Both the position numbers and the translations under genes were made by a program. A stretch of DNA of 64,000 bases from Strigamia acuminata (lineage: Eukaryota; Arthropoda; Chilopoda; Geophilomorpha; Linotaeniidae). This document shows positions 10,788 to 55,378 of this stretch, in pieces (positions within the stretch are counted from its first letter, which is position 1; the number at the start of each line of letters is the position of its first letter). The stretch covers positions 59,591,369 through 59,655,368 of the forward strand of contig OX442314.1 of the NCBI GenBank assembly GCA_949358305.1, written 5' to 3'. The notes beneath the pieces were generated by a model, which made no database searches, was not told where the DNA came from, and worked only from the letters and a program-made list of their open reading frames with translations.

Positions 10788-10800
10788 GGTTAGGTTAGGT
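10788..10800. other. TTAGG-like tract at a deletion junction
   Basis: GGTTAGGTTAGG joins gag directly to mid reverse transcriptase. TTAGG is the usual arthropod telomere unit. The gag stop codon (10795-10797) lies inside the tract. It may be filler added during double-strand break repair, or chance. Confidence 0.5.
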
Positions 10801-12465: not shown

Positions 12466-12480
12466 CCGCAATCTCCACCA
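12466..12480 (-). other. Gyp1 primer-binding site (tentative)
   Basis: Three bases inside the 5' LTR the minus strand reads TGGTGGAGATTGCGG. The first ten bases complement an animal tRNA-Ala 3' end, then a one-base shift is needed. Another tRNA may fit better. Confidence 0.5.
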
Positions 12481-12483
12481 CTT

Positions 12484-15300: not shown

Positions 15301-15301
15301 T

Positions 15302-15319
15302 TGGTGCCGAAACCCGGGA
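15302..15319 (+). other. BEL1 primer-binding site (tRNA-Phe)
   Basis: TGGTGCCGAAACCCGGGA is the exact complement of the 3' end of animal tRNA-Phe (CCCGGGTTTCGGCA plus CCA). It primes minus-strand DNA synthesis. Confidence 0.85.
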
Positions 15320-15362
15320 AAACATCTAAGTAATTCCCCACATCACACGCTGAATCACAAAT

Positions 15363-18300
15363 ATGGTACGCGTGTACGAGATAAAGAGGCGAGCGCTCAC
15401 GACGGCCATTGCTGCTGCCAACGCCCTGATGACCACTATCACCACGGGAGTCAACAACGCAGCCCTATTGTCGAAGGACGAACTCGCCCTTTGGTCGCAA
15501 CAACTCAACCAAAAATTACTCAGAGCACAAAAATCGTTTGAAGTCTGTTTGGAACAAGCCAAGTCGGAACACGAGATCGATGAAACAATGGGCGATATGG
15601 ATGCGACAGAAGACAGAGCAGCCGCTACAAAGGCAACGATAGACAGGTACATTCGAATAAATTACCCGCCTGTTCCACCTGTAGTCGACGCTCCGCTGCC
15701 CGCACCCACGCCGATTGACCACGACGCGCTCGTCGCAGCCGTGACCGCCGCTGTGACCGCCACCGCTCGAGCCACTCCGCCGCCCGTGATCCACCAAAAT
15801 GTAAGAAGAAAACCGCTGGAAATTCCGAGGTTCGACGGGAAACGACCCGAGGACTGGGGGGGTTTCTGGAAGACTTTTTGCGTACAGGTCGCGGACGACG
15901 CGACGCTCGACGAGGAACAAAAGCTGCTGCACTTACGTGCTCATCTGCTCGGCGACGCAATGGAGGAAATTAGAACACTCGAAATAAATGCCGCCAACTA
16001 CGCCGTGGCTGTGAATCGACTGACGAAAAAATACTGTGATCGGGCAGTGTTGGAAAACAGGTTTTTGTCTAACTTATTAAATTTGCCAATCATTAGCAGT
16101 GAACGAGACATTGTTGGACTACAAAAGCTGCACCGACACGTGGAAATAAACGTGGAAAACTTGTCGAATATCCAAGTTCCGCTCGTAGAAATCCAACGCA
16201 TGCTGTTCCCCGTCCTGGCCGCAGCCATTCCGAGAACTGTAATGCGCAAATATGATGACGACTGCGAGGGCGAACGATCGGTAATCAGATTAATGTCGTG
16301 GGTACGAGAATTTTTATTAAAGGAGAATCGATACGAAATGATGATAAACCAACAAAAAGCGATCAAAACACCCACGCCAACTGACCCGGCCAAAGGAAGT
16401 GGAGATTCGAAGGGAAAGTCACATCGACGCAGAGGAGGAGTCAAGGAGAGCTCCGTCAACTCACTCTCGGTGGTAACAAATAAATGTCAATTTTGCTCTT
16501 CTAATGAACACAGCCGAAAAACGTGCCCACTCACGGTGGAAGAGCGAAGGAGGAAAATTCAATCACAAGGAACCTGCATGAGATGTTTAGGCAGAACACC
16601 CCATAAAACTGAAGACTGCCGTACCACCATGAAATGCTTCCGATGTGACGGATTACACCACACTCAAATCTGCGATCAACCACGAGCCAACCCGATCGAC
16701 AACACTGCGCTAAAAGTACACGCCTCTGCCGTCGTGAGTAAAACCAAGAAATACGAATTTTTAATGGTGATGATGGTGAACGTGATTGGCGAAAAAATAA
16801 CGAAACCAGCCGTGTGCTACGTCGATGGCGGGGCACAACGGACATTTATAAGAGCTGATCTGTCGAGAAAACTAAATCTGAAAATTATAGGAACCGAGCA
16901 AATGACTTTATCCGTGTTTGGTCGCGAGCCGACGACTGGAGTCCACAACAAGGTGGAATTGACTCTCACTCCAACGCACGCCGAGACGCCTCGCATCACA
17001 ATAGAAGCCGTAGAAATCTCACACGTGACGTCAACACCCTGCGAAGTCCCGAATGAATACTTAAAAAAAAAATTGAAGGAGAAAGGAGTCCAAGCGGCAT
17101 GTAAACAGGTGGCCCTGCATTCCGACGAGGTGGATTTGTTGATAGGAGTCGACAACTACTGGAAAATTACGACCAAGAGAACTGAATTCATAGAAGACAA
17201 CTTAATAGCAGTCAACACAAACTTTGGGTGGACACTGCATGGACAAACAACCAATGGCACTCACATCCTTGCAACAACGGTGAGAACAAATAAAATCACC
17301 TTTGTACAATCCACAGATGACATTATGAAGAAACTCTGGGAATTGGAGGCCATTGGAATCCAGCATGAGTCGATGGAAGACACGGACGAAGTCGAAGTTC
17401 TGCGCAAATTCAACGAATCAATACGATGGACTGGAACCAACTACTCGGTTGCACTGCCGTGGGTCGTCGACAGCAACGAGCTAGAAGATAATTTTACCAT
17501 TGCAGAGCAGCGTTTCATGAATTTGCTTAGAAAATTCCGTCGACAGCCTAATTTGTATTTAGAATATAAAAAAGTCATCGAGGAACAATTGGAACAAGGC
17601 ATCGTTGAAGAAGTGACCGGAGACACGTCCAACCCAATTTATTACATGCCACACAGGCCAATAATAAAAGAAGAGCGAGTTACAACAAAACTGAGGATCG
17701 TGTTCGACGCGTCAGCCCATCAAAAGGGGCAGCTATCGCTAAACGATTGCCTGTCCAAAGGTATAAACTTTTTGCCGTCCCTAATCGTTGTATTGATGAA
17801 ATTTAGACTCCGAAAAATCGCTGAGACGTCGGATATTCGCAAGGCGTTCCACATGATCGAAATTGAAGTAAAGGATCGAGACGTAACACGTTTTCTGTGG
17901 GTTTGCGCAGACTGGGACGGAACGCGACGAGCCAAAATTCGAGTACTACGCCAAACACGCGTTCTCTTCGGCGCAGCGCCCAGCCCTTTCCTTTTAAATG
18001 CAACCATCAAACGCCACATCAAGATCTACCAAGACAAATATCCCGCCACATACGAATTACTTTGTCGATTCTTATACGTGGACGATTTGATCACGTCGGT
18101 GGACGACATTGACCAGGCAGTGAGGACATTCGAACAAGCTCGCGAAATGCTCTCATCAGCCGGCATGCAACTGGTAAAATGGCAGACTAATTCTCCTGAA
18201 CTACGCGAAATATTCAGAAAAGAAGATCCTGCAGATGCAAAGGTGACATCAAATGAAGAATCCAAAGTGCTGGGACTGAAATGGGATCCAACTTCAGACA

Positions 18301-20630: not shown

Positions 20631-21096
20631 AAACCGACACGCTTTTACACGTGTATTATTATTAAAATTTATTCATTATTTGTTCATTGTTTGAAATAGT
20701 CCGATATTTGATATATCATTGAATTTGACTGTGTTTTATTTAATTCTTTTAAAGTTGTATTTTATTTAATTTGAAGTGGCTATTTTTCAACTTGACCTTT
20801 TTATCTTTTTCTGAGAATCAACTCGTCTTTCTATGTGTTAGCAATTATCTGGCGTTCCCCTTTGGAACTCGTCATATTTTCTCCGTGTGCTTCACCCTGT
20901 AGCATGGAGTATTTGTCATTGTTTCTTTGTATTTTTAATTACCACTGTTCTGAATAGAATAAAATTAGTCTTGAAGAAGTTTTGAACCAACAAGTCATGC
21001 TCTTTATTTCTCACAATCTACACAACAATTTGAGATCGAATATTGTTATTCAGGGAATCTACAATTAATCCGCAAATATCATATTGCATTTCAAAT
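20626..21096 (+). repeat. BEL1 3' LTR
   Basis: Downstream LTR, overlapping the last five bases of the gag-pol frame (its TGTGA supplies the TGA stop). No clear polypurine tract precedes it; the nearest purine run is AAAAATGGAGA about 28 bases upstream. Confidence 0.93.
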
Positions 21097-34946: not shown

Positions 34947-34948
34947 AT

Positions 34949-34967
34949 TGGTAGCAGAGGATGGTTT
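34949..34967 (+). other. Cop1 primer-binding site (initiator tRNA-Met)
   Basis: TGGTAGCAGAGGATGGTTT is a 19-base exact complement of the 3' end of animal initiator tRNA-Met including CCA. Confidence 0.9.
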
Positions 34968-35353
34968 AATCCTCTGCACGCTTCATTTGCCACTAATTAT
35001 CGCCAAAAATTACGCGAATTTCGCGAATTTTGCGGCGAATTTATATTTTCAGGTTTTTTTCACCATTTTCAAGCTGGATTCCCGTGATCTGAACGTCGGT
35101 AACGTTCCACTAACGTTCACAAGCAACCTGTGCTACGCTTCACGTGATTCTCCGGCTAATTTCGTCCGAAATTGTGCAGTCTCGCAAATTTCGAGGCGAA
35201 TTTTCGTATTTTTCAGATTTTCGACGATTTTCCGTTTCGACAACGTCGATGAGACGTTCTCCATCGAGAAACGAGACGATTCTCGCTTCATGCACCCCGG
35301 AGTGCATGTAGTATCGCCGATTTTTGATTATTTCAACGCTTTAAGTGAAGAGC

Positions 35354-35709
35354 CTCGATTTGATCGAGAAGAATTCGGTTTTTCGAAGCCGAATTGCGCT
35401 TTTCTAGCAGGTTTTTCGAGAAAACCTGTCTCGTGCTTTGCCGCGAGCCCGTGTGACCTTCCACGGGGGATTCATCACCTTTCGCCTTCCCTGTCGATTT
35501 TATTTGTTAGTCATAAGATAATTTTAAGTTTTTGGTGTGGGCCAATATTAGAATCGCCGCAGCCCTTGGGACAGTCGTCTCAGCTGTGGTTGTATTCTTT
35601 GACAAGGCTGAGCCCTGCCTCACCTAACGTTTCCGTGGCCCCAGGTGGCTTGCAAAGGGCGTTAGGGGGACACTTGTCAAAGGTTATTTGGTCAATTTTA
35701 GCATTGACC
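35354..35709 (+). ncRNA. Cop1 structured 5' leader
   Basis: At least six hairpins precede the gag ATG: 35354-35368 (CTCGAT/ATCGAG), 35372-35395 (AATTCGG/CCGAATT), 35408-35428 (CAGGTTTT/AAAACCTG, loop TCGAG), 35567-35582 (TGGGAC/GTCTCA, loop AGTC), 35597-35682 (CTTTGACAAG/CTTGTCAAAG enclosing a conserved core), 35690-35709 (GGTCAAT/ATTGACC, loop TTTAGC). Each has a counterpart in Cop2 with compensatory base changes. Such leaders in LTR elements hold dimerisation, packaging or internal-initiation signals; which applies here is unknown. Confidence 0.7.
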
Positions 35710-35873
35710 GCCCCCTTGATTGATATCCGCCTTGAACCATGTTGGAAGTGCTGTGCTCCGATCTGTGTTTACAACGACATTTTTGTGCCACTGAGTAGTG
35801 AAGTGCTTCGAACGCCGTTATACCATTTCCCTGAGTCCGTGTATTTTGCGTGGTGCGCCGAGTCTTCGCAACG

Positions 35874-38800
35874 ATGCAAAAGACAACGGAAACGACGGTC
35901 AGCCGAATTCCCATTCTCTCTGTCGGGAATTACGAGCCCTGGCAGAGAGCGATGCGGATGCTTTTAAAATCCGAGGGCCTTTGGAGGCATGTAACGGAGG
36001 AGAAGGAGGCCGACCATCTCCTAACATTATCTGAAAAGGAAAAGGAACGTTACATGGTCAAAAAGGACAAAGCTCTCGGACATATCTATATGTATGTCAG
36101 CGAACCGAAACGTTCAGCCCTGGACAATTGTGATACTCCTAAACAGGCATGGGACGTTCTGGCAAAAGCGTACGCGCCCAGTTCGCGGGCACGACGGGCA
36201 GCATTACGATCGGAATTCTTGACGTTGCATCTTGAACCTAATGAGGAAATGCAGGATTTCATTAATCGAGTTGATCATTTTGTTCGTCAATTGGCTGACA
36301 TCAAAGAGGTCACGACAGATGATCATCACGCATATCAATACCTCAACCGATTACCGCCCGAATACGCACAAGCAACGTTCGCCATATATCACTGGCCTGA
36401 TCAAGACTTTACACCGACTAAAGTTGCCGAACAATTGATTTCAGAATACCTACGGTTGAAACCGATGGGATTGCACAATGTACACTCATCTTCTGTGCAT
36501 TCGTCTGTAAAAGGCCAACAATCCCGAAAGAATTCTCGTCCTCGTCGACCGTTATCGGAAATTAAATGTTTCAACTGCAATGAGATGGGGCATTATGCCA
36601 ACAAGTGCCCATTTCCTCCACGCGACAAGAGTAATCAGGCATCGGCTTCTTTCCAACGCTCTCGAAGCAAGAGCAAGAAGCGCAACAAAAACTCCGCGCC
36701 AAAGCCAGATGATACGCGTCCGCGAGGCTGTTCTCGTCCAACACGAGAAGGGACATTCTTCGCCAGTGCCCCACAAGCCCCAGCGCGCCCAGTCGCTCAT
36801 TTTATGCAATCCAACGAATGGATTGTCGACTGTGGCGCGACGGACCACGTTTCATACGTTCGGGCTTGGTTTACGGATTTTGTGGACATCGTACCTTTTG
36901 ACATCGAGCTCGGACAAGGCAAGTCCAAGGTGACTGGAAAAGGAAATGTCCAACTGCTCACAAGAATAGATGACTGCAATTGTATTGTGAATTTGACTAA
37001 TGTACTTTTTGCACCGAATTTCGAGGCCAATTTGATTTCGGTTTCCAAAATTGACAAAACACGTCATCACATACACTTTTACAACGGTGAAGTCAACATC
37101 TATCAATCGGACATTCGGAGCTCCATTCTACGAGCAAAGGAGAAGGCAGGATTGTATTATGTGGACGGTTTATGTTCGACTCCTTCTGTGTCTGCGGCGA
37201 TTTCGACCCCAGTGTCGACGATAATTCCGACACCCGTTCAGCAAACGCCGGCGCTGACTTATGTCACCACAGAAGTGGATTTTGAGAACATTTCGAAACA
37301 GAAAAAGGGGAAATCGAAACAAGGAGGCAATACGGATTTTCGAATAGAAATGCCGCCGATTCCGAAGCAAATTCAGAATCAAATTTCCAATCCGACCCAG
37401 TCTCTGCCTGTTCCCCAATCCACGCCTATCCAACCAGATCCTCCTATCCAATCCTATTCCAACGTTCTCCAATCCATTCCGACAACGCCATTACCTAGTA
37501 TTCTTCCTGCCATACCTCCTCCTTCGAGCAATCCTTCTACATCACAAAAGAAGGTAATTGCTAACCCTGCAAACGTAAAGGATGCTACGGGTCTATGGCA
37601 TAGCAGATTAGGGCATTTGCACACGAATGCAATGCGCCTGTTGGCAAACAACGAACAAGTATACGGAATGGAACCGGGAGAAGTAAAACAAGAACTCGCT
37701 TGCAATGACTGCCGTCTTGCAAAATCGATTAAGATTTCCCACAAACCGGACCTTCACCCGAGTACTACCAAAGTACTACGATCAAAGCCATTCGCACAGA
37801 CCGTGGCGGCGAATTCATGTCCAATGAATTCGAGCGCTATTTGAAGGACAAAGGGATCCAAGGGCAGCGAACGAACCCATCGAGCCCACAGATGAACGGA
37901 ACGGCCGAGCGCATTAATAGAACGATGGCTGACAATATCCGCGCGATTCATGAAGAAACCAAACTTCCGGCCGGTTTATGGGCAGAGCTCGCTGTAACTT
38001 TCGCTTACATCAAGAATAGAAGTCCTCATTCACGTTTAAAGAATCAAGTCCCCTATGTACTTTGGCGTGAACGAGCATTATCTTTACGACACTTACGAAA
38101 GATCGGATCTAAATGTTGGGTCCACTACACGGCGCCAGGCCGTAAAAAGCTTGAGCCACGCGCATGGGAAGGATACCTCGTTAGGTACGCGGTCGCGACA
38201 CGTGGCTACAGAATTTGGAATTTAATCGATAATAAAGTCACGGAATCAGCTCATGTTCGCATAGACGAGCATCAATCGTATCGCAAATTTCTTCGAAATA
38301 TACCAAATGGCAACAATGAATCCTTCTATGAACCCAACAACGAGCAACAAAGAGTATCATTCAATGACACTGTCGAATATGCAAACTGGTCGATCAAGCC
38401 AGCATCAGATGATGAGCATTCGATATCCGAAGAAAAATCTGTGTCCAAGTCGGCTTCTAAATCAAAGACGCCATCTATGCAGATCGTTCATATTCCCCCG
38501 CCAACTACACCGGAACGACAATTATTGGAACTTTGCGCATCGACATTGCCAACTCCAATTCGTCATTCCATATCACATCCGATCACTAACGAGGAAAACC
38601 AAGAGGCCGCTGCAGGACCAATTGGGGACGACACCGACGATGACGCTGAGCAGATCGAAGAATTTGCGGTTCAACCGGACGCGGAAGAATTGCAACCGAA
38701 TCAGTCTGCACATGTGTCACCGGAAACGTCCAATGTCAGCTCCCCCGGCCTTTCACCACCGACTTCCCCAAATCGTTTCATCACGTTACGTAGGAAAGCC

Positions 38801-40702
38801 GGTCCGAACATTTTACAGCACACAATGCCTATCTTTGATCAGGGGCAAATGTCTCCATTACCTCCTGGCGCAACACATGTTGCAGCTCCTTCTGCCGGCA
38901 AGACATCATTCTATTGGCGTTATGTTGGCGGAAACACAGTATTCCGTAAATGGATTCGCGAAGAACATCTACGCAAAGATCAACAGCCAGGTTCGATAGA
39001 CATCGATGTCTACTACTTCCCGGAACCCGGCCTCCGACTTCGATCTCGCAGAGACGTCGAAGAGTTCTGTGTTATGAACAATCTTCCTTACGACCCCGAG
39101 TTATTCTTTTTCGGCAATATGGAGCATACACTACCATTGATTCCTCCAGCTCGACATGCCGCTCATCTCTGTCGCACCGAACCGTCATCGTATGCGGAAA
39201 TTCCCAAATTCGACGACGCTCCAAAGTGGCGTGAAGCCATCGGTGAAGAGTTAGGAACCTTTAAAGAGCGGGAAATTTATGTCGAAGTGCCGAAACCGCC
39301 TAACACGACAATCTTGGGTTGTAAATGGATTTTTAAACTCAAATCAGATGCGACCGGCAAGATCACTCGATATCGTGCTCGACTTGTCGCCCAAGGCTTT
39401 CGCCAAACTTTCGGAATCGATTACGACGAAGTCTTTAGCCCAGTAGTGAATTTCGTCCTCATTCGTCTATTCTTTTGCCTTTTGGTAGTGCTACGAGGAT
39501 GGAAAGATGCACACCTCGACGTCAAATGTGCATACCTGTACGGGGACCTGGAGCACAAGGTCTATATGCGCATCCCGGCAGGTGCCACTTGTAATCACCC
39601 CGACAACGTTTGGTTACTCGTGAAATCTCTTTACGGACTCCACCAGTCTGGTCGACAATGGTATCTGAAACTGGACGAAACACTTTGAGCCCTCGGATTC
39701 CGGAAAATGCCTGCTTGCAACTGCGTTTACATCTACGGCAATTGCGCAGTCATGTTAGTCTACGTCGATGATATTGTACTTTTCTATGCAGCCGACAGTG
39801 TTTTGGACCGGATTATTCGACTTATCACTTCGAAATTCGACATAGTCAACCTCGGCCCAATTACTAGACTGTTAGGCGTCGAGTTTATCCGCGAGATGGG
39901 ACGCACTTACATCTCTCAACGTGCGTACATTGCTAAACTCGTTCAGAAATACGGGACATCGACCAATCGACTCGTTAAAGTGCCAGTAACACCCGGGACC
40001 ACATTAGTTCGAGCATCGACAGAGGACCTGATCGATTTTCCCTACCGCTCACTCATCGGGTCACTGCTCTTTCTGGCTTCACGGACGCGCCCCGACATCT
40101 TATTTTCCGTCATCTCGCTTTCGCAGTTCAACACATGCTACGATAACACCCACATTCGTGCCCTTCTACAAGTTCTCCAATATGTAGCCAATACTTCGGA
40201 CTATTGCATCGAACTTTCCAACTGTGTATCGAGTCAGTTATGGGCTTATGTGGATGCCTCGTGGGCTAGCGACCTGGCGACATCTTTAAGTTTCGGCGGC
40301 TTCATAACGTATATCGGGAATGTGCCAATTGGCTGGTCGTGTCGAAAACAATCGACTGTCGCGTGTTCAACTATGGAAGCCGAATTCCTCGCCCTAGTTG
40401 AATGCGTGAAGGAAACCTTTTGGCTCGACAACATCTTCACCGAATTCCCGATTCTTAACCGTCTGTCCCGTCCGATTATTTACTCCGATGCCCTAGCCAG
40501 CATACAATTCACATCCAACGACGTGGAAAACTCGAAGACGAAGCATATCCGCGTCAAGTATCACTGGCTTAGGGAATGGTATACGGCAAGCTGTTTTGAT
40601 CTCCGAAAAGTGTCCAGCGAGCACAACGTCGCGGACATATTCACTAAGTGGCTCAGTTCAGAGCGTCTTCAGTCGTTGATCTCTCGTGTGTTCCGACTTT
40701 AG
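35874..40702 (+). pseudogene. gag-pol: Cop1 Gag-Pol polyprotein, broken
   Basis: From the ATG at 35874 the frame gives a Copia gag (VSRIPILSVGNYEPW, UBN2-like), the zinc knuckle CFNCNEMGHYANKC, a protease with WIVDCGATDHVS, and the GAG-pre-integrase domain ending in HKPDLHP. There about 200 bases including the first catalytic integrase residue are missing compared with Cop2, at a junction with a direct repeat (AGTACTAC), and the frame shifts. It resumes at IRTDRGGEF (about 37790) through the rest of integrase and the N-terminal half of reverse transcriptase to a TGA at 39686-39688, where Cop2 has CGA-type Arg. It then continues in the same frame to 40702 with YVDD near 39765 and RNase H. It cannot encode a working enzyme set. 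Confidence 0.93.
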
Positions 40703-40788
40703 ACTTTATCGTGACATTCTTTGGTTATTTACCCGACTTCGAGGATCGCCAAGTTTCTGCGGGAATATTCGGGCCTACGTGGCGTTTT
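40703..40788 (+). other. Cop1 3' untranslated region, left part
   Basis: Short stretch after the Cop1 stop, interrupted by Cop2 at the GTTTT target site (40784-40788). It resumes at 48041. Confidence 0.85.
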
Positions 40789-41350
40789 TGTTGGCGTGTT
40801 CTGCGCCGTCTACTTCAATATGAGTTCTAACTTTATGTTTTAATTATGTTATTCGATATTTTATCCATTAATTGTTATATCTCGATGTATTATTTATATT
40901 CCGTAACGTAATTCTTATTTCCGATTGTATTTGTATGCATTGGCACAATGCATTTCATTATTTGTCGTTATGTATACGGCACATTGCTATGCCTAGCAAT
41001 TCGATTATAGTTTGATGTTAATTATTAACGCCAGATGGCGTTTATGTAGTCTTTACTCGTATTCAATATGGCGTCCCACACAGGCGTGTGTGAATTAGCT
41101 GCTTTCATCCTTTGTTTGGACATTTATGTAAGTTATTATCGTTCCATTAAATTTATTTTATCATTTTAAACATTAGTTGTTTGGTTTATTGCACCTTACG
41201 TGCATTTACGTGTGCACATAAGCGACATTACGTCGCGCACTATTGAAAACGACAGGCGAACGTTCGCGCGAGTCGCGCGACGCGGTTTTGCGCCTTTCAA
41301 AGCACGTTTCCTTCGGTAATATACCGAATATTGCGCACTCCTCTGCTACA
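40789..41350 (+). repeat. Cop2 5' LTR
   Basis: 562 bases. Palindrome AACGCCA/TGGCGTT at 41027-41042, CAATATGGCG near 41064, GTAAGT at 41128-41133 and ATTAAA just after, in the same order as in Cop1 and the LTR at 63553. Confidence 0.93.
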
Positions 41351-41352
41351 GT

Positions 41353-41370
41353 TGGTAGCAGAGGGTGGTT
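41353..41370 (+). other. Cop2 primer-binding site (initiator tRNA-Met)
   Basis: TGGTAGCAGAGGGTGGTT, one mismatch from the 3' end complement of animal initiator tRNA-Met. Confidence 0.88.
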
Positions 41371-41888
41371 GCTGCCTAATTCAACCATTTTTTGCCTAAT
41401 TTTCGACAACATTCTCGCGAAATTCGCGATTTTGCGTCGAAAGTTTCTATTTTCAGGTAGCAACGATCTTCGCCGCGATTTTCGTCTGCCATACGTTTCG
41501 GGGAGTGTCTGGGACGCATCACCGACGTTTTGGACCGTGCACGCTGCACATTTCGTCATTTTCGAGCCGAATTTTGCACGGAATATCGCCAAATTTGCGA
41601 ATTTCAGTGCAAATATTGTATTTTCTAGGTTTTTCGGTTTTTTCGACGTCTCGCAGCAGCCAAGGCTGTTGTTTCAACGATTCCTCGTTTAATGCCGTAC
41701 GGAATTACGCGGGATTCGCGATTTTCGATACGGATTTTCTTTATTTACAGATTTTCCAACAATTTGCGATTTCGACACTGCTTAGCGAAGAGCGGCAGTT
41801 GCAACGAGAAACGAACACTCGATTGTTCGCGGTGCAGTTCCCCGGAGAACGGCCGTTATACGCCGATCTTTACAAGAGGAAGAAGAGC

Positions 41889-42235
41889 CTCGAATTATTT
41901 CGAGAAGAATTCGGACATTAACGTCCGAATTGCGCTTTCTCCAGCTTTTCGAGAAAGCTGCGCCGTGCCCACATTTGCACGAGGATCGCAACCGCGATTG
42001 ATTCATCTATTTCGCCTTTTTCGAATTATTTTGTTAGTTTGTAAGATATTTTTAAGATTTTGGTTGGGTCAATTAGTATCGGTTTCGCCCTTGTGTCCAG
42101 TCGGGCACGCGAAGCTTGTATTCCCAGTTAAGGCTTTCTCAGGGCCACCTAACGTTTCCGTGACCCCAGGTGGTTTGCAAAGGGCGTTAGGGAGATACTT
42201 AACTGGGGTTATTTGTGCCAATTGTAGCATTGGCA
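41889..42235 (+). ncRNA. Cop2 structured 5' leader
   Basis: Hairpins in the same order as Cop1: 41889-41904 (CTCGAA/TTCGAG), 41908-41931 (AATTCGGAC/GTCCGAATT), 41942-41960 (CAGCTTT/AAAGCTG, loop TCGAG), 42093-42108 (GTGTCC/GGGCAC, loop AGTC), 42123-42207 (CCCAGTTAAG/CTTAACTGGG around the shared core CACCTAACGTTTCCGTG), 42216-42235 (TGCCAAT/ATTGGCA, loop TGTAGC). Stem sequences differ from Cop1 on both sides together, while two loops are identical and the core is nearly so. Confidence 0.72.
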
Positions 42236-42416
42236 TCCCCGTCTTGGTTTCCGCATTGACAGTGCTTCGGTTTAAGTGCGACGATAAGTGCTCCGTGATA
42301 AAAGTGCATCAAACTCTCGTGCATTTACGTTTGTGCTTCGTTTCACAACACCATTTTGCCAGTGCCATTCTCAATTTCACGATATTTTTCGCGTTTGTGT
42401 TTCAACGACCACAAAA

Positions 42417-45400
42417 ATGCAGAAATCCGAAAATACCGTGTCTCGAGTGCCAATCCTCGCAGTCGGCAACTACGAAATGTGGGCCCGTAGTATGAAAATG
42501 CTACTGAAGTCAGAAGGGCTGTGGACCCACGTTACCGAAGAGGACGAGGAGGATTTCAAGAAAACGGCAAATGACAAAGAACTTAAAAAGTATAAGCGCC
42601 GTAAGGACAAGGCGTTGGGCCTTATCTATGGTTTCGTGTCTGAGCCCAAAAAGTCAGCGTTGGACTCCGCCAATACGCCCAAAGAGGCATGGGACACTTT
42701 ATCCAAAATATATGCCCCAAGCTCTCGCGCTCGAAAGGCGGCCTTACGGCGAGAATTTCTTCACATGAAATTGGAACGGAACGAGGAAATGGCGGACTTT
42801 CTGGGAAGGGTCGATTACCACGCCAGGAAGCTAGAAGATATTGGGGAGAAAGTTTCACCTGATCACCTGGCGTACCAGTACCTAGACATGCTGCCAGCTG
42901 AATATTCCCAGGTGTCATTCGCCATTTACCATTGGGAAGATCCGATATTCACACCCCAGAAAGTGTCCGAACAACTCCTTTCGGAGTATATGCGTCAAAA
43001 ATCTTATTCGTCCCGGGATTCGACATCCGCATCATCTTCTCACGCGTACTCGACGGACCAGCGTTCCCGTTCTCGGGGTCAACGTCCATTGTCGTCCATC
43101 AGATGTTTCAACTGCGGAGAAATGGGGCACTACGCGAACAAGTGTCCCCAGCCTCGAAAAGGCCAGTCACCGGCCCCATCCGCGGCTTTCCAACGTCCGT
43201 CCAGGAGTAAAAGCCGAAAACGAGGCAAGAATAATCCCAACAAATCGAATGACGGGCGCCCAAGAGGAAGTTCACAAGCAAAGAGAGAATCGAACTTTTT
43301 CGTGCATGCGCCACCACAGATCATCGAAATGCCCGCAGCCCACTTCATGCAGTCGCACGAATGGATCGTGGACTGCGGGGCAACAGATCATGTGTCCCAC
43401 GTCGCATCGTGGTTTACCAGTTTTGTCAAAGTCGTGCCCTTTGACATCGAATTGGGCCAAGGCACTTCTCAGGTGACTGGTAAAGGAACGGTGCGAATTG
43501 AAACTTTAATCGATGGATGCGAGTGTGCAGTCAATTTGCACGACGTGTTATATGCACCGAACTTTGAAGCAAATTTAATCTCGGTGTCGAAAATCGATAA
43601 ACACGAGCATCACATCCATATTTACAAAGGACGAGTGGACATCTACAAGGCAGATTTTCGTTATCCTGTTCTCCGAGCTAAAGAAAAGGGCGGTCTATAC
43701 TACGTGGATGGCTTGTGCCCACCGGTGTCTTCGACAGCAAATACGACGACAAGTGCGATTTCTGTTTCGAATCCTCTGCCTCCGATAAAGACTTTAGTCA
43801 CGGTTGAGGAAGACTTCATCAAAGTCCCGAAATCCAGAAAGAAACCGAAGGAACGCGAGTTGACAGATTTTGGATTTGAGTTTCCTCCATTACCACAGAA
43901 AGCCCAAACACTTCCTGTTCCAAAATCTCCTCCCATTCCCGCACCTGTCCCGACATCGCACCAAGCCAATCCAGAGCCTCCCTCACTCCAATCCTATACT
44001 GACATATTAAAATCGATCCCTTTTGCACATGTTCCTCCTCCTCCTCCTGAACTCAAACAGAAGAAGGTGGCTGCACCAACTGCAAAGAAGGACGCGACGG
44101 GTATTTGGCACAGTCGACTTGGCCATCTCCACACGAATGCGATGAAATTACTCGCGGCCAACGACCAAGTCTACGGCATCGAACCAAGCGAGGTTGCGAA
44201 GGAATTGACCTGCAACCATTGCAGGGTAGCCAAGTCAACTAGGGCATCTCACAAGCCCGATGATCATCCGATAATGTCAAAAGCGTTAGATCTCCTCCAC
44301 ATGGATCTGTGGGGCCCACATCAAACCACTTCGTTCGGCGGCGCTCGATACATTTTCACCATTATTGACGACGCAACCCGATATACGTGGATGTTTCCCC
44401 TGGCTCAAAAATCCCAGACTTTCGAATGCTTCAAGGATTTTGTTTCCCGTATCGAGCGAGTGGCAGACACTCGAGTTAAAGCAATTCGAACGGACCGGGG
44501 CGGCGAATTCCTATCAAACGAATTCGTCGATTATCTACGTAAGAGTGGCATTCAGGGTCAACGTACGAACCCATCGAGCCCCCAGATGAACGGCACGGCC
44601 GAAAGAATAAACCGAACAATGGCCGACTTCATGAGAGCAACTCTGGACGAAACTCGTTTACCCGAGGAACTTTGGGCAGAAATGTCGGTTTCGTTTGCGT
44701 ACATCAAAAATCGTTGCCCCCATTCACGTTTGAAGAACGAAGTCCCGTATGTTCTGTGGAGACAACGTGCATTATCGGTTCGGCATCTACGTAAACTCGG
44801 ATCGAAATGCTGGGTCCACTTTACAGCGCCTGGACGTAACAAGTTGGCACCCCGCGCCTGGGAGGGTTATCTCGTCGGTTATGCGACATCAACACGCGGC
44901 TATCGGGTGTGGAACCCGGTTGATAACAAAGTGATTGAGTCGATACATGTGCAAATCGACGAACGACAATCTTTCCGACGCACGCAACGTGCCCCTAATC
45001 CGAATCGTGAATCTACTGTTGAACTCGAACCCGAAACGTCAATTACGCCGTCGTCACATGTCAAGTTCGACGACAAAGTACAATACGCGGAATGGACGCC
45101 TCTTTCTGATTCTGAGGATGAGGGATCTTCAACGGAATATGATTCGGATGATAGCGACGCAGACAGCCAAAAGGGTGCTGCTGCACCACGTCAAGTGTCC
45201 CCGCCGCCTGGCTTTGCTGCTCTGCCACCTCCTTCGACGGGTGCGACACCGTCAGCTACTCCAATTACTACGCCAGCACCGTCTACGGGTACGACACCGA
45301 CAGCTACTCCTACTGCTTCACCTCCGGGATCCCCAACAAGATTTGTAGCCGTTAGAAGAGGCTCTGGGGCAACACATCCAATAGCTGCTGCTCCGATAAT

Positions 45401-48955: not shown

Positions 48956-49235
48956 TGTTGGCTTTTGTTCTCCGAGATTTGTGATATGCAATTGATTATT
49001 GATGTTACACATGTTTGATTTGTAATTATTTATGATTTTATAGTTTATTATCATGTAAACATTGATGTATCAATTGGGTTACCGTAGTTGGAGTTGTTTT
49101 TTAACTGCTTAGCAACTGTTGTTATTACTTGTTCTCTTGTTGTTGATTTTTCTCCATGCTTGCATGAGATGATTAAATCTTGTTCTTTTACTCACTTTTG
49201 GCCTGGAATTTGTTCATCAATCCATACTTTCAACA
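48956..49235 (+). repeat. Cop3 5' LTR
   Basis: 280 bases, unusually short beside the 550-570-base LTRs of Cop1 and Cop2. It lacks the palindrome and ATGGCG motifs of those. Confidence 0.93.
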
Positions 49236-49249
49236 TGGTAGCAGAGGAT
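49236..49249 (+). other. Cop3 primer-binding site (initiator tRNA-Met)
   Basis: TGGTAGCAGAGGAT abuts the LTR and complements the last 14 bases of initiator tRNA-Met with CCA. Confidence 0.88.
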
Positions 49250-50271
49250 TAGAGTTCATTCCATCACTGTGAGTTGTTCATGTTGAATTTTGGCCAAGTT
49301 TTTGTCAAAATTCCATGAATTTTCGTTCATCTTATCCTGCTGATCGATTACTCGCTCCTGGCAAAATGGCCGACCTCGTTTCTTCATGCCTGCTCACCCG
49401 ACGATTTTGATGCTTTTTCTGCAATTTGCAACGGATTTGAACGCTGCAAATTTTCGTGGGTACTGTCCTGAGCTTGTAGAAGGATCGTGGGTACTTTTCC
49501 TGATGGATTTTTGTGAATTTTCGCCGATGATCGCCGCAGATTCGCCCGATCGCGATGCACCAAATTCCGAGTGATTTTCGCCGACGATTTTCGCGTATTT
49601 CATCGAGTTTTTGACTGTGCCATCCAGTATCTGCTTGTGTTTAGCAGTGTACGTGTTATACACACGATTGTGAGTACTTTTCATCATGTTTTCCACGTTT
49701 TTCGGGCCGATTTTCGTTGTTTTTGCGCCATATACCCGTGCGCTTCACGAGGATCTTCTCGCCGAATTTTAACGTGCTTTTCATCGAATTTAGTGCTTTT
49801 TCGTCGATACTGTGTTGTGCCAGGGATTACTGGATTATTCCACTTGTTTCTACAAGTGTTGTGAGTACTTTGGGATTTGTTTCAAATTTTTTTTGTGTCC
49901 GTTACGTCGATTACGAACACGAGAGCAGCAGACGCATTTTGTGACTGTTTTTTCAAGATTTTCGTCGATTTTCGAAGATCTTTGAAGATTTTAAACATTG
50001 AATTGAATTCTCATGTACTTTTTCGTGTTTATTTTTGCAGATTTCGTCAGGTTACGTCGATTTTTGCGTGGATTTCCGTGTGAAATCAGACACGAAGTGG
50101 CAGAAGTTTGCCAACCAATTTGCAGAGATTTTCAAGAAGTTTTGATCGAGTTTTCCAAGAGATTCTACCAGATTCTCCTCATTTTTTTTCATGAAACTTT
50201 GTTAAATATTAAGTTTCGTGAAACTTTGTATAAGATTAAGGTTTTTGGTAGGGACCTGGTGTAGGATCCTG

Positions 50272-50344
50272 GATTTGTATTTGTTAGTGGATTTAATTGC
50301 CCTAACAGATACAAATCTTTGCCTCGGTCATTGCACTTTGACCG
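50272..50344 (+). ncRNA. Cop3 leader hairpins
   Basis: A 16-base-pair stem, GATTTGTATTTGTTAG (50272-50287) with CTAACAGATACAAATC (50302-50317), one G-T pair, followed by CGGTCA/TGACCG (50325-50344). They lie 205 bases before the gag ATG, about where Cop1 and Cop2 carry theirs. Probably a packaging or translation element of the leader; inferred from structure only. Confidence 0.6.
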
Positions 50345-50549
50345 TTGTATTAATTTGCCGTGCCCGACAGTGGAGTATCCGGGGGCCATAGGGCCATTAT
50401 TTCCCGACAACTCCTAAACGGCCACTGTTTAGTTGGGTTGGCTAGCAACCTGAATAGTCCAATTCTGGTTTTCCGCCTCGAACAACGATACCGCGCGTTC
50501 TCCTGTCACCTCGACCAAACTTTTCGCAGAACCGCTCACTTATATCGTC

Positions 50550-53500
50550 ATGGCGGATTCCGGCAAATCTCACCAATTTTCAATTCCACGACTGAACTCT
50601 GATAACTACGAATCTTGGTCCCGAAATATCCAATTTTTGCTCTTGGAAAAAGGAGTAGATGATTTCATCTCAGAGAATCCTCCGGTCAGAGACGAAGCCT
50701 GGGATCAGCCTCGAAAACAGCTTCACGACGACCGTTCAAAGCGTGCAAAAGCCTTGCTTGGCTTGTTTGTCGAGTCCCAATATCAGGACATTGTTCTTGC
50801 TGCGGACTCCGCACGTGACGCCTGGGTAGCCTTGAAAGCGACATTTCAGCCGACTTCTCTTGCCCGAATTGCTAAACTCCGCCGAGATTTCCTGATGATG
50901 CGTTTACTTCCGAATGAAGACATGTCAGTTTTCATTAGCCGTGTCACCAAAGCCCGTGCCGTTTTGAAGGACTTGGAAGTTACATTTTCGGATTCGGATG
51001 TCGCTTATCAACTTTTGGATTTGTTACCGGATTCATACGAGGCGACCGTGCAAACGATTTACCATTGGTCCAAAGCGGATTTCACATTAAAGGGAGTCTC
51101 CGACCATCTTCTCTCCGAATTTAATCGTTTGAAGATGAAGAATGCAGATTCGGGGTCATCGACTAGTTTACAGTCAGCGAGTTCGTCTTCGAGTGCACCG
51201 ACGAGAGTTTTCAAGCCCTTGTCACAAATTCAGTGCTTTAATTGCAAGGAAATGGGACACTATGCGAACAAGTGCCCCAAACCTCGAGTCCAGGGCGTTG
51301 CCTCTTCCAACTCGTCTACCAATCGTGGTCGCCGATCTTCGTCTCGGAACCGCAAAAGTGGACGCGGTAATGCAACACCACCTGCCCCGAGTGCTCAAAG
51401 TGTTTCAAGTGCAAGGTCCGGTTTAGGTTTCTTTGCACGGTCAGAATCCAACGTCGCATCGACTTCGTCTTTGGAATGGCTAATTGATTCGGGTTCATCT
51501 GATCACGTGTGTTGCCGTCGTGATTCTTTTTCGACGTACAAGCCCGTTTCGAATTATTTCATCATTTTGGGTGAAGGCCGTTCACGAGTTGATGGTATAG
51601 GTGACGTGGTTTTGCGGATTGGTCGTGGTGGCGCGAAAGGAGAATTTCCCGTCACAATGCATAATGTTCTTCATGCCCCCGCTTTTTCGCGTAATTTAGT
51701 CAGTTTGTCAAAAATTGATCGCGCCGGACTACATTTTGTGGCTTCAAATGGTTTAATGACCATTTTTGATCCGTCCGACAAAGCCAAACAATTTCTTTTG
51801 CATGCCAAACTGAAGGATGATTTATATTCCCTTCAGCATGTCTTGCCCGCAGATCCTACATCTGCGCCGCTTCCTGCGCTTACGGCCACCTCAGTGGTCA
51901 AGCCGGTCCTCTCTGCGCAGACTATAAAGCCTGCTCGGCATGTCACTTTTGCCGAGGGACCTGCTTTATCCCCTCCTTGTAAGCCCCCGAAGGGGAAGTT
52001 ATCCGATTTAGAGCTTTGGCACCGGAGATTTGGGCATTTTAATACCGAAGGTTTACACTTTTTAGCGAAATCTCCGAATGCTTCCGGAATCGATATTTCG
52101 ACTTCCGCATTTCCGGCATGTGCCGTGTGTGCTCGTTCTAAATCCACCCGAGCCTCGTTTCCGAGTGCAAAGAATAGAATTTCCAGTAAGAAGCCTTTGG
52201 ATTTAATCCATATGGACGTTTGGGGAAATTCCCCAACTACTTCCGTGGGTGGCGCTCGTTATTTATTAACGATCGTGGATGACTTTTCTCGCTATTCCTT
52301 TGTTGTCCCTATGAAAACGAAGGGGGAAGTTTTTGAAGTTTTTAAACTTTTCCATGCTCGGATGGAAACATTATGGGGGGCTGGCTGCATTAAAGCAGTC
52401 AGAACCGATAACGGGATGGAATTTTGCTCTAAAAATTTCGAAAATTTCTTGCTCCAGCGTGGCATCAAGGCACAGCGCACGAATGTTTATACACCTGAGC
52501 AGAATGGCGTTGCGGAACGCCTTAACCGCACCTTATTTGAAGGCGTGCGTTCCTTGTTTTTGATGACGTCTTTGCCTCGAGAATTGTGGGCTGAGCTCGC
52601 GGTTTCAATGATTTATCTCAAGAATCGCTTTCCACATAAATCTCTGAACAACCTTATCCCCTATTGTCTGTGGTACAATAAGGCTGTTCCACTCAAGCAC
52701 TTAAAAGTGATTGGGTCAAGGTGTTTCGTGCACATACCACAACAGGTCCGTGGTTCAAAATTCGAGTCTCGAGCCTGGACGGGTGTAGTTGTTGGCTATG
52801 CTTTGCGCACGCGAGGTTATCGCGTGTGGTGCCCGAAGCGCCGTGCAGTGTTTGAGTCAAAGCATGTTCGTTTTGATGAAAACTGCATGTGGGGACATCC
52901 TCGTTTTTATGAGGGTACTGAGGTAACTGATGAGGGAGCTATATCGGTGACATTAGATTCGGATTTCGATTCCGATCCACCTCTTCCTCCACCTCCTCCT
53001 CAACGTCCCCCCAATCTTCCTCCGCTTTCTTATCCTCCTCCACCTTCTTATCCTCCTCCTCCACCGCCTGTGGTTACTCGACCTTCGGCGCAAGCGCATC
53101 CGTTGCCTACACCACCTACTATTGCCTCGCCACTAAATCAGCCTCAGCCTTCTACTTCGGCTGTGGGGGGCAAGTGGACTCGCTCCGAGGTGATTCGGCA
53201 GTCTGGTGCGACTATGGGAAACACTGATGTGTATTTTTATCCCCCGGATCATACCAGATTACGGAGTCATGTTGACGTTGCGCAATATTGCGCAGATCAT
53301 CGATTAGCATATGACCGGGATAATTTTGACTTTTGCACCCGGAACGTGCCTGTTTGCACGGTTGATCCCCCTCCGGCAGATCCAACTGCTTTTCCTCTTC
53401 CTAGTCCTACGGCTTCAGAAGATGAAGCATTAGGGGATTGCTATTCTGCTACACCACGGTACGCGCACTCCTTATTTGCCCAGGTTCCTCGCACCTATAA

Positions 53501-55031
53501 GGAAGCTATTGCAAGTCCCGACCGTGTCCATTGGCAGAAAGCCATGGAGGAAGAGCTTTCACTCTTCCGTGAGCGAGGTGTTTACGAAGAGGTTGAGAAA
53601 CCTCCTTCTAATGTGAACATTGTGGGGAATAAATGGGTTTACTACATCAAGCGCGATGCAGAAGGCGTCGTGCGCCGTTTTAGAGCGATGTTGGTTGCCC
53701 AGGGCTTTAGCCAAAAGTTCGGAGTCGACTATTCCGAGGTTTTCAGTCCCGTGGTTAACTATGTGCTTATACGCCTGTTTTTCGTGCTTCTAGTAGTCGT
53801 TTTAGGCTGGCTAGATGCACATCTCGATGTCAAGGGTGCTTATTTATATGGCAACTTAGATGAAGCTATCTTCATGAGAATTCCTAAGGGCTGGGAAACT
53901 CCTCAGAATGCCGGTAAGGTATGGAGGCTTCATAAGGCCCTTTATGGCCTTCATCAGAGCGGACGGCAATGGAATTTCCGCCTAGTTGAGGCTTTGCTAG
54001 GGATTAATTTCCACAAGCTTCTTGGGATTAATGGCGTATTTATTTCCAACACTTATGATGCTGTCATCCTTGTTTATGTTGATGACATGGTACTTTTCAC
54101 CAAAGGACAAGATCCGCGTGATCGAACTGTTAAGGCCCTTCGTGCAATTTTCACGATAACAGATTTGGGTCCGGTATCGAAGTTGTTGGGCGTCCAATTT
54201 GATCGCGATGGTGGTAAAATCTGCATCCATCAGCGCGATTACATTGATAAGATTGCTGAAGACTACGGAATTTCCTCCGAGCATTTGTGCAAAGTCCCGA
54301 TTACCGTTGGCACGATGGTCAATTGTGCTAGAGATGGTGAACGTGTTTTGAGGGATGATGAATTCCCATATCGGTCTCTCATTGGGTCTCTGCTCTTTCT
54401 AGCTTCTCGAACGCGTCCCGATATCCTCTTTCCAGTTATCCTTATGTCACAATATAACACGTGCTTTACTGGAAGGCACGTGGCCCTTTTGCTACAGATC
54501 CTCCAGTATGTGAAGAATACGCGGGAATATTCAATTCAGCTTTCCGCGGTCACTGGAGATATTCTATCAGGGCACTCCGATGCTTCTTGGATCTCAGATC
54601 GAGATACAAGAAAGAGCTTCGGAGGTTATACGATTTCGGTGTTCGGGGTTCCCATTTCCTGGGGTTGCTGTAAGCAACGCTATTGCGCCTTGTCCATTAT
54701 GGAAGCGGAATTCCTAGCGCTTTTGGACGGTGCAAAGGAAATTGTCTGGCTTCATGGTGCGATTGAGCGGACCCGGATTTTTCAACTTCCGGCCCCAACC
54801 ATGTTCTCTGATTCTCTGTCGACGATTTTTTTCACCCGCAACGATATAGAGAATCGGAGGACAAAGCACATTGACGTGAAATTCTTTTTCCTGCGGGATT
54901 GGCTAAATGAGGGTGTTTTTGTTTTGAGGAAAGTTTCAGGTGAATTAAACCCTGCGGACATCTTCACAAAATTTTTCTCGCCCGCCCGCATTCGATATTT
55001 ATGTCAACATTTTTACAGTAGTTTGCGATAG
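50550..55031 (+). CDS. gag-pol: Cop3 Gag-Pol polyprotein
   Basis: 1493 uninterrupted codons. Gag (residues about 1-225, FSIPRLNSDNYESWSRNIQF); zinc knuckle CFNCKEMGHYANKC at about 229-242; aspartic protease LIDSGSSDHVC near 313; GAG-pre-integrase (LWHRRFGHFN); integrase core with IHMDVWGN near 555, AVRTDNGMEF and NGVAERLNRT; a proline-rich linker around 810-870; reverse transcriptase with LVYVDDMVLF near 1175; RNase H with SDASWISDRDTRKSFGG and ending PADIFTKFF. All catalytic residues I can check are present. Gag and Pol share one frame with no stop or shift, as in Drosophila copia, so the Gag to Pol ratio must be set by another route such as splicing or processing. Confidence 0.96.
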   Translation: MADSGKSHQFSIPRLNSDNYESWSRNIQFLLLEKGVDDFISENPPVRDEAWDQPRKQLHDDRSKRAKALLGLFVESQYQDIVLAADSARDAWVALKATFQPTSLARIAKLRRDFLMMRLLPNEDMSVFISRVTKARAVLKDLEVTFSDSDVAYQLLDLLPDSYEATVQTIYHWSKADFTLKGVSDHLLSEFNRLKMKNADSGSSTSLQSASSSSSAPTRVFKPLSQIQCFNCKEMGHYANKCPKPRVQGVASSNSSTNRGRRSSSRNRKSGRGNATPPAPSAQSVSSARSGLGFFARSESNVASTSSLEWLIDSGSSDHVCCRRDSFSTYKPVSNYFIILGEGRSRVDGIGDVVLRIGRGGAKGEFPVTMHNVLHAPAFSRNLVSLSKIDRAGLHFVASNGLMTIFDPSDKAKQFLLHAKLKDDLYSLQHVLPADPTSAPLPALTATSVVKPVLSAQTIKPARHVTFAEGPALSPPCKPPKGKLSDLELWHRRFGHFNTEGLHFLAKSPNASGIDISTSAFPACAVCARSKSTRASFPSAKNRISSKKPLDLIHMDVWGNSPTTSVGGARYLLTIVDDFSRYSFVVPMKTKGEVFEVFKLFHARMETLWGAGCIKAVRTDNGMEFCSKNFENFLLQRGIKAQRTNVYTPEQNGVAERLNRTLFEGVRSLFLMTSLPRELWAELAVSMIYLKNRFPHKSLNNLIPYCLWYNKAVPLKHLKVIGSRCFVHIPQQVRGSKFESRAWTGVVVGYALRTRGYRVWCPKRRAVFESKHVRFDENCMWGHPRFYEGTEVTDEGAISVTLDSDFDSDPPLPPPPPQRPPNLPPLSYPPPPSYPPPPPPVVTRPSAQAHPLPTPPTIASPLNQPQPSTSAVGGKWTRSEVIRQSGATMGNTDVYFYPPDHTRLRSHVDVAQYCADHRLAYDRDNFDFCTRNVPVCTVDPPPADPTAFPLPSPTASEDEALGDCYSATPRYAHSLFAQVPRTYKEAIASPDRVHWQKAMEEELSLFRERGVYEEVEKPPSNVNIVGNKWVYYIKRDAEGVVRRFRAMLVAQGFSQKFGVDYSEVFSPVVNYVLIRLFFVLLVVVLGWLDAHLDVKGAYLYGNLDEAIFMRIPKGWETPQNAGKVWRLHKALYGLHQSGRQWNFRLVEALLGINFHKLLGINGVFISNTYDAVILVYVDDMVLFTKGQDPRDRTVKALRAIFTITDLGPVSKLLGVQFDRDGGKICIHQRDYIDKIAEDYGISSEHLCKVPITVGTMVNCARDGERVLRDDEFPYRSLIGSLLFLASRTRPDILFPVILMSQYNTCFTGRHVALLLQILQYVKNTREYSIQLSAVTGDILSGHSDASWISDRDTRKSFGGYTISVFGVPISWGCCKQRYCALSIMEAEFLALLDGAKEIVWLHGAIERTRIFQLPAPTMFSDSLSTIFFTRNDIENRRTKHIDVKFFFLRDWLNEGVFVLRKVSGELNPADIFTKFFSPARIRYLCQHFYSSLR

Positions 55032-55083
55032 GTTTTCGCATTTACTTTTGTTATATCTTGTTATATGATTGAGTCATGTCTCG

Positions 55084-55098
55084 GAGAATGGGGGGCTC
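55084..55098 (+). other. Cop3 polypurine tract
   Basis: GAGAATGGGGGGCTC directly before the 3' LTR. Confidence 0.8.
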
Positions 55099-55378
55099 TG
55101 TTGGCTTTTGTTCTCCGAGATTTGTGATATGCAATTGATTATTGATGTTACACATGTTTGATTTGTAATTATTTATGATTTTATAGTTTATTATCATGTA
55201 AACATTGATGTATCAATTGGGTTACCGTAGTTGGAGTTGTTTTTTAACTGCTTAGCAACTGTTGTTATTACTTGTTCTCTTGTTGTTGATTTTTCTCCAT
55301 GCTTGCATGAGATGATTAAATCTTGTTCTTTTACTCACTTTTGGCCTGGAATTTGTTCATCAATCCATACTTTCAACA
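55099..55378 (+). repeat. Cop3 3' LTR
   Basis: 280 bases, no difference from the 5' copy that I can see. Followed by AAAGG and Gyp2b sequence. Confidence 0.93.

What the first reader, a model, noticed from the sequence alone, without database searches (positions are those of the whole stretch)
35567..42235. Covarying hairpin core in the 5' leaders of Cop1 and Cop2
Three helices near the gag start differ between the families by paired changes. Long stem: CTTTGACAAG/CTTGTCAAAG in Cop1 (35597-35606, 35673-35682) against CCCAGTTAAG/CTTAACTGGG in Cop2 (42123-42132, 42198-42207); five of ten pairs changed on both sides. Upstream hairpin: TGGGAC/GTCTCA against GTGTCC/GGGCAC, both with loop AGTC. Downstream hairpin: GGTCAAT/ATTGACC against TGCCAAT/ATTGGCA with loops TTTAGC and TGTAGC. 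The long stem encloses a nearly invariant 45-base core starting CACCTAACGTTTCCGTG. Compensatory change with conserved loops is the hallmark of selected RNA structure. Likely roles are genome dimerisation, packaging or internal initiation; I know of no described motif of this kind.
Basis: seen in the sequence. Interest (0 to 1): 0.86.

Follow-up and report, generated by a model that had tools for sequence, protein, structure and literature searches.

The report
Shared folded leader in copia elements
In one genome, copia-type mobile elements of many families share an RNA segment just ahead of their first gene that is predicted to fold, with paired mutations that keep its stems matching, and it likely marks their RNA for packaging into particles.

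Summary
Both leaders carry the three hairpins at the stated places. In the same 237.5-Mb genome, all 40 leaders that I read after choosing them by gag homology alone (40 of 150 scored gag hits) carry the domain. In 69 distinct sequences 95.0% of pair cells pair, and 32 of 37 pairs change on both sides. Every helix beats a tree-aware null; an all-against-all test finds significant pairs only in the long stem.

The "invariant core" is two more covarying helices, and the upstream hairpin has an unseen 8-bp outer stem. Leaders avoid upstream AUGs more than eightfold, which argues against an IRES as sole function. A recently amplified family without the capsid part of Gag keeps the domain. I read it as a cis-acting signal of the genomic RNA, most likely for Gag recognition and packaging (inferred, untested). 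Between domain and gag lies an AUG-poor linker with AGUGC repeats, a possible second part, although folding predicts those repeats mostly paired. Rfam has no match, and seven paper searches found no description.

The parts
34948..34967 (+). Cop1 primer-binding site, complementary to the 3' end of initiator tRNA-Met (tRNA identity recalled), at the 5' end of the leader
   Evidence: a copy with an extended tRNA complement
35556..35590 (+). Cop1 upstream hairpin P0: outer stem 35556-35563/35583-35590, inner stem 35567-35572/35577-35582, loop AGTC 35573-35576
   Evidence: fold of each distinct copy; tree-aware null
35597..35606 (+). Cop1 long stem P1, 5' arm
35673..35682 (+). Cop1 long stem P1, 3' arm
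35613..35615 (+). Cop1 helix P2, 5' arm (pairs with 35667-35669)
35623..35666 (+). Cop1 helices P3 (35623-35632/35657-35666) and P4 (35637-35640/35647-35650) with hexaloop CCAGGT 35641-35646: the 'invariant core'
   Evidence: covariation in other families; loops
35690..35709 (+). Cop1 downstream hairpin P5, loop TTTAGC
35710..35873 (+). Cop1 linker to gag: one ATG, two AGTGC repeats
35874..36473 (+). Cop1 gag start, copia-type gag (PF14223)
42081..42116 (+). Cop2 upstream hairpin P0: outer stem 42081-42088/42109-42116, inner stem 42093-42098/42103-42108, loop AGTC 42099-42102
42123..42132 (+). Cop2 long stem P1, 5' arm
42198..42207 (+). Cop2 long stem P1, 3' arm
42137..42140 (+). Cop2 helix P2, 5' arm (pairs with 42192-42195)
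42148..42191 (+). Cop2 helices P3 (42148-42157/42182-42191) and P4 (42162-42165/42172-42175) with hexaloop CCAGGT 42166-42171
42216..42235 (+). Cop2 downstream hairpin P5, loop TGTAGC
42236..42416 (+). Cop2 linker to gag: no ATG, five AGTGC repeats
42417..43016 (+). Cop2 gag start, copia-type gag (PF14223)

Best explanation
The leaders of these copia elements carry a predicted RNA fold of seven covarying helices, followed by an AUG-poor linker with AGUGC repeats, that likely acts as the cis signal by which Gag recognises the genomic RNA and packages it. Shown: the covariation, the excess of G-U over A-C cells that points to the sense strand, the presence of the domain in every leader read that was chosen by gag homology, its position between primer-binding site and gag, the AUG avoidance, the repeats, and its presence in a recently amplified family that lacks the capsid part of Gag. 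Inferred: that the RNA folds so in the cell, that Gag (through its zinc knuckle) is the partner, that packaging is the step served, and that relatives' Gag supplies the capsid for the capsid-less family. Not settled: whether the apical C(C/T)AGG loop also starts dimerisation.
For: Structure: 95.0% of 2547 cells paired in 69 distinct sequences, 32 of 37 pairs with changes on both sides (24.3 shuffled), 514 double-change cells against 133 shuffled and at most 79 when slid. Tree-aware null per helix: reached in 0 of 500 simulations for six helices and 1 of 500 for P0 inner. All-pairs test without given structure: 4 pairs (stringent null) or 3 (R-scape-like null) of 16471 significant, all in P1. 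G-U cells 135 against A-C 54, and 134 against 20 outside P2. Generality: 40 of 40 leaders read among 150 scored gag hits (2419 candidates) match the model. Position: the windows over Cop1 35528-35727 have 0.69-0.95 mean identity among 8 representatives, the rest of the leader 0.11-0.67. Against translation as sole role: 17 ATG observed, 147.7 expected, in 14 leaders without the primer-binding site; nine other trinucleotides 0.48-1.12 of expectation. Capsid-less family: L147 lacks PF14223 and any capsid match at E<1, but matches Cop2 Gag residues 210-400; RT 76% identical to Cop2; identical LTR stretches of 300 nt; 37 of 40 matches at 99-100% over the region of the missing part. All 15 of these copies that fall in the listed part have the core 128 bases away. 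Precedents seen as passages: MoMuLV NC with one zinc knuckle binds UCUG linkers beside hairpins (PMC7599994); BARE2, without own Gag, keeps packaging and dimerisation signals (PMC3735527).
Against: No binding, packaging or probing data exist here. The capsid-less family is young and near-identical, so the domain may simply not have decayed, and it still has a long ORF to translate. Predicted folds put the AGTGC repeats mostly in pairs (mean unpaired probability 0.20 against 0.43 for the rest of the linker, 9 leaders), which does not support an open Gag site. Folding energy does not single out the domain: its windows have mean z of -1.35 to -1.56, while windows near -600 and -550 reach -2.72 and -2.09 (8 leaders). 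Only P1 pairs reach all-pairs significance. One measure does not exceed shuffles clearly: further pair types 76 against 71.2, reached in 32 of 500, and in A1 43 against 44.2. Several families have one upstream ATG whose ORF overlaps the gag start, which plain scanning does not explain well.
Confidence: 0.5

Rival explanations
1. The domain controls translation of gag: an internal ribosome entry site or shunt landing site that delivers ribosomes to the AUG-poor linker, from which they scan to the gag AUG.
For: Domain followed by a linker with 1 ATG observed against 62.9 expected in 43 distinct linkers; gag AUG 231-273 nt from the core in 14 representatives; windows starting 0 to +150 from the core show no excess structure (mean z -0.33 to 0.41); several families carry an upstream ORF that overlaps the gag start.
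Against: ATG is depleted upstream of the domain too, which an IRES would make needless; the capsid-less family keeps the domain. No Rfam IRES family matches.
Confidence: 0.2
2. The domain is a nuclear-export or RNA-stability element of the unspliced RNA, like a constitutive transport element: a long rod with conserved internal loops bound by a host protein.
For: Rod of P1-P4 with near-constant unpaired letters: AAAGG on the 3' side of the P3/P4 internal loop in 63 of 69, apical loop C(C/T)AGG in 67 of 69. It would also serve the capsid-less family.
Against: No test was made here; splicing of these RNAs was not examined.
Confidence: 0.12
3. The domain serves reverse transcription (primer annealing, circularisation or strand transfer), as long-range pairings do in Ty1.
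For: Lies in the same leader as the primer-binding site; Ty1 leader pairings are needed for reverse transcription (PMC4974528 passages).
Against: The core lies 587-840 nt from the primer-binding site in the leaders measured. No pairing partner was found; complementarity was looked at by eye only.
Confidence: 0.1
4. The domain is a dimerisation signal through the AACGTT palindrome in the core.
For: AACGTT is in both window copies.
Against: In other families these letters are AGCACT, AGCATT, GACACT or AGTATT, and their first part pairs within P3. A weaker version through the C(C/T)AGG loop remains open.
Confidence: 0.02
5. No current function: shared ancestry plus gene conversion keeps the arms alike.
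For: Many copies are near-identical and related; recombinant-looking copies occur (L060).
Against: Paired changes beat tree-aware nulls in every helix, while the linker and most of the leader have diverged.
Confidence: 0.03

Closest known systems
Moloney MuLV packaging signal (psi: DIS-2, SL-C, SL-D and UCUG linkers)
   Same: Hairpin cluster in the leader, conserved loops, short repeated linker motif, NC with a single zinc knuckle (passages of PMC7599994; one CCHC hit in each Cop gag)
   Different: No sequence relation; LTR retrotransposon of the copia type; repeat is AGUGC; binding and packaging untested here; repeats predicted mostly paired
Ty1 leader structure of yeast (pseudoknot, kissing loops, packaging region)
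   Same: Same superfamily (recalled), initiator tRNA primer, structured leader (passages of PMC4974528)
   Different: Ty1's region is at the 5' end with a long-range pseudoknot; here the core lies 587-840 nt downstream of the primer-binding site and needs no pseudoknot
BARE1/BARE2 of barley
   Same: Family that cannot make Gag yet keeps packaging and dimerisation signals and is abundant (passages of PMC3735527)
   Different: Here the capsid part alone is missing; the zinc-knuckle part and pol are kept. Packaging in trans is inferred
Conserved non-coding motifs of Sireviruses (plant copia)
   Different: Those are PPT, PBS-junction and LTR repeat motifs; the passages I saw describe no covarying leader domain

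Membership tests
Any described RNA family (Rfam 15) | Covariance-model match at gathering score | tested here: not met
   only sub-threshold hits, none recurring on the domain; one search covered 10 loci
Retroviral-type packaging signal (psi) | Conserved structure between primer-binding site and gag | tested here: met
Retroviral-type packaging signal (psi) | Binds cognate Gag/NC and is needed for packaging | not testable with these tools
   needs binding and packaging assays
Retroviral-type packaging signal (psi) | Retained by elements that depend on Gag in trans | tested here: inconclusive
   kept in the capsid-less family, but that family is young
Dimer initiation site (kissing loop) | Palindromic loop kept across families | tested here: inconclusive
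   AACGTT not kept; apical loop C(C/T)AGG in 67 of 69, self-complementary as CTAG or around a central mismatch (read by eye)
IRES | Cap-independent initiation | not testable with these tools
   needs reporter assays
IRES | Upstream leader free to hold AUGs (circumstantial) | tested here: not met
   AUGs avoided upstream as well
Self-cleaving ribozymes (hammerhead, HDV-like, twister) | Catalytic core recognised by Rfam models | tested here: not met
   no cleavage assay
BARE2-like Gag-dependent copia element (L147 family) | Multi-copy, capsid part of gag absent, LTRs and leader kept | tested here: met

The most novel reading that the evidence does not exclude
This is a packaging signal shared across a whole animal copia clade: a seven-helix domain plus AGUGC repeats that any family's Gag can read, so that families package each other's RNA, recombine, and are parasitised by a family that has thrown away its capsid gene but kept the ticket.
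Probability: 0.33. Interest if true: 0.78.

Novelty: new variant of a known kind. Interest (0 to 1): 0.62.

Why it matters
How copia-type elements choose their RNA for particles is, as far as I know, mapped well only in yeast Ty1. Here is a compact leader domain with covariation support in every helix, a linker with a repeated word, and a natural capsid-less user. That makes RNA choice in animal copia elements testable with short RNAs.

Tried and rejected
Pseudoknot CACC/GGTG + TAACG/CGTTA in the core: rejected, GGTG varies to GGCG/GGAG without change in CACC, and P3+P4 explain the letters with covariation. AACGTT kissing loop: rejected. Leader as coding sequence: long open frames cross both leaders, but the linker has indels not divisible by three and the frame differs relative to gag between families; rejected. 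Complementarity of AGTGC repeats to initiator tRNA: considered by eye only, dropped because the NN of AGTGCNNCG varies. Relatives elsewhere: IMG/VR gave none for two exact patterns nor for the gag profile (104 pattern stretches, none confirmed). Protein relatives: gag one hit only, Strigamia maritima 52%; named RT hits include Strigamia, Araneus and Cordylochernes (best 120 of 2433 listed). Host left unnamed: the search for its COI did not complete. L033, L043, L066 as non-autonomous copies: truncated or rearranged copies.

The outer P2 pairs (columns 59/121, 60/120 of A3) fail in the Cop1-like group (46 and 31 of 69 unpaired); I keep only the inner three. P3 was counted with 6 pairs and with 10. 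In one search the printed ATG distances are 130 too small by a slip in the script; I do not use them. In one search the primer-binding site of L147 was not found by exact match, so its leader figures there are not used.
Full report
What is there. The window holds two copia-type LTR retrotransposons, Cop2 (repeats at 40787 and 47472) lying inside Cop1 (repeats at 34378 and 48156). Both encode a copia gag (PF14223), a zinc knuckle and RVT_2 reverse transcriptase; Cop1's coding region is split over several frames and interrupted by Cop2. Between primer-binding site and gag ATG lies a leader of 926 nt (Cop1, locus L008) and 1065 nt (Cop2, locus L009). The hairpins lie 165-336 nt before the gag ATG, at the coordinates given.

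Copies. The window's genome has 237.5 Mb in 157 contigs. The first 17 bases of the core have 67 exact, 11 one-mismatch and 21 two-mismatch hits; the reversed pattern has 27 in all. I read 90 of the 99: 81 carry the domain region, 9 two-mismatch hits do not. The 81 reduce to 49 distinct sequences; one cut by an insertion (L066) was dropped, leaving 48 in alignment A1. In 67 of 70 loci of the first set gag follows; the other three are truncated or rearranged copies. To avoid choosing copies by the motif, I searched the genome with the first 200 residues of Cop1 gag: 150 hits were scored out of 2419 candidates. I read the leaders of 40 of these 150, picked by hand across families; all 40 match the covariance model built from A1, E at most 2.9e-14. 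A second core variant has 275 exact hits against none for its reversed control; 16 read, 16 match.

Structure. In A3 (77 rows, 69 distinct, from 76 of the loci held) 95.0% of 2547 cells pair, against 74.3% after shuffling and 32.0-49.4% after sliding; 32 of 37 pairs have changes on both sides (24.3 shuffled), and 514 cells hold double changes against 133 shuffled; further pair types, 76, do not clearly exceed shuffles (71.2; 32 of 500 reach it). This alignment was fitted to the model, so I repeated the test on structure-blind MAFFT alignments with a FastTree tree and simulated nulls. Among all 16471 column pairs of 70 sequences, 4 (stringent null) or 3 (R-scape-like null) are significant at E<0.05, all in P1 and at least 99% canonical; no other pair is. 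With 50 sequences there are 4, all in P1. This is my own script, not R-scape. At helix level, observed pairing against null mean is 0.80/0.33 (P0 outer), 0.83/0.56 (P0 inner), 0.99/0.56 (P1), 0.91/0.55 (P2, inner three), 0.93/0.61 (P3), 0.95/0.53 (P4), 0.97/0.35 (P5); only P0 inner is reached, in 1 of 500 simulations. The helices were named from one sequence (L009), which favours them somewhat. G-U cells outnumber A-C cells 134 to 20 outside P2, as expected if the sense RNA folds; part of the G-U count comes from one nearly constant pair in P4. Folding energy alone does not single the domain out: mean z -1.35 to -1.56 in its windows, lower near -600 and -550 from the core.

Architecture. P0: an 8-bp outer stem, an asymmetric bulge and a 5-6-bp inner stem, loop AGTC in 42 of 69 as aligned. 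Linker GTATT in 63 of 69. P1: ten pairs, 99.4% of cells paired. Then P2, P3 (CCTAAC/GTTAGG, CCTAGC/GCTAGG, CCTGAC/GTCAGG, CCTAGT/ACTAGG in different families) and P4 (GGCC/GGCT, GATC/GATC, AACC/GGTT and others) with loop C(C/T)AGGN in 67 of 69. After P1 comes P5 with loop TGTAGC in 49 of 69. A family with about 77% gag identity (L097 and kin) has a very different rod sequence with the same outline, with a mismatch each in P3 and P4 as aligned.

Around it. In a global alignment of 8 representatives the windows over Cop1 35528-35727 have 0.69-0.95 mean identity, the rest of the leader 0.11-0.67. The linker to gag is short on ATG: 1 observed, 62.9 expected, in 43 distinct linkers. An unbiased 5-mer scan of 18 linkers less than 0.85 alike puts AGTGC first: 50 observed, 4.0 expected, in 18 of 18; in gag it is 3 against 3.3 and in the upstream leader 5 against 1.4 (8 sequences each). 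The linkers are related, so these counts are not independent. Folding predicts the repeats mostly paired (0.20 unpaired against 0.43, 9 leaders), against a simple open-site reading. Over whole leaders without the primer-binding site, ATG occurs 17 times against 147.7 expected in 14 related representatives: the leader looks as if scanned from its 5' end. Yet several families hold one ATG whose ORF runs into gag.

Capsid-less family. L131, L134, L135 and L137, four of the 16 loci of the second variant, have the domain but no gag match within 651 bp. The 8-kb stretch around one (L147) shows identical repeats of 300 nt, an open frame with Pol_BBD, integrase, RT and a sub-threshold zinc-knuckle hit but no PF14223, no match to Cop1 gag, no capsid match at E<1 while Cop2 Gag residues 210-400 match at 60%, and RT 76% identical to Cop2. 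A 201-bp probe over the region of the missing part has 40 scored matches of 46 candidates: 37 at 99-100%, 3 partial ones of which the 2 I read are gag-bearing relatives. Of the 37, 15 lie where one search listed its places, and all 15 have the core 128 bases away. So a family without a capsid gene has multiplied recently with the domain in place. Its linker holds three AGTGC.

Reading. The domain is kept by elements whose Gag N-termini differ by up to about 40% and by one that lacks capsid; it sits where packaging signals of retroviruses sit; ATG avoidance speaks for ordinary scanning. I therefore favour Gag recognition and packaging, at 0.5. Precedents were seen as passages only: MoMuLV (PMC7599994), BARE2 (PMC3735527), Ty1 (PMC4974528), Sireviruses (PMC2829016).

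Limits. No relatives in other species were reached. Searches for a printed description: listings and abstract beginnings only; two further searches had other aims, and of PMC4244043 I saw passages.

Noticed in passing
L147 (G000:C1:37933800-37941800) and 36 further places: Recently amplified copia family that lacks the capsid part of gag but keeps the zinc-knuckle part, integrase, RT and the leader domain; its ORF also has an MBD domain hit (E 4.4e-5).
   Followed up: partly
window 35710-35873 and 42236-42416: Linkers before gag hold repeated AGTGC words, often AGTGCNNCG; AGTGC is the most enriched 5-mer (50 against 4.0 in 18 linkers).
   Followed up: partly
L040:2608-2674 (minus strand): One copy has a primer-binding site that runs on as a complement of initiator tRNA through the anticodon arm to the D arm (tRNA layout recalled), as if reverse transcriptase had copied on into the tRNA.
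   Followed up: no
window 34954-34977: The Cop1 primer-binding site can fold on itself: GCAGAGGAT is followed by ATCCTCTGC.
   Followed up: no
window 35289-35306 and 35448-35467; L103, L109: Further hairpins upstream in the leader look covarying between families by eye (for example before GATTCATC); windows near -600 and -550 from the core fold below shuffles (mean z -2.72 and -2.09).
   Followed up: no
window 9046-9560 and 10110-10329: Tandem repeats of 103 and 110 bases.
   Followed up: no
window 14830-20925, 4885-12782, 48956-55378: Other LTR-like direct repeat pairs; model R1 finds no domain there.
   Followed up: no
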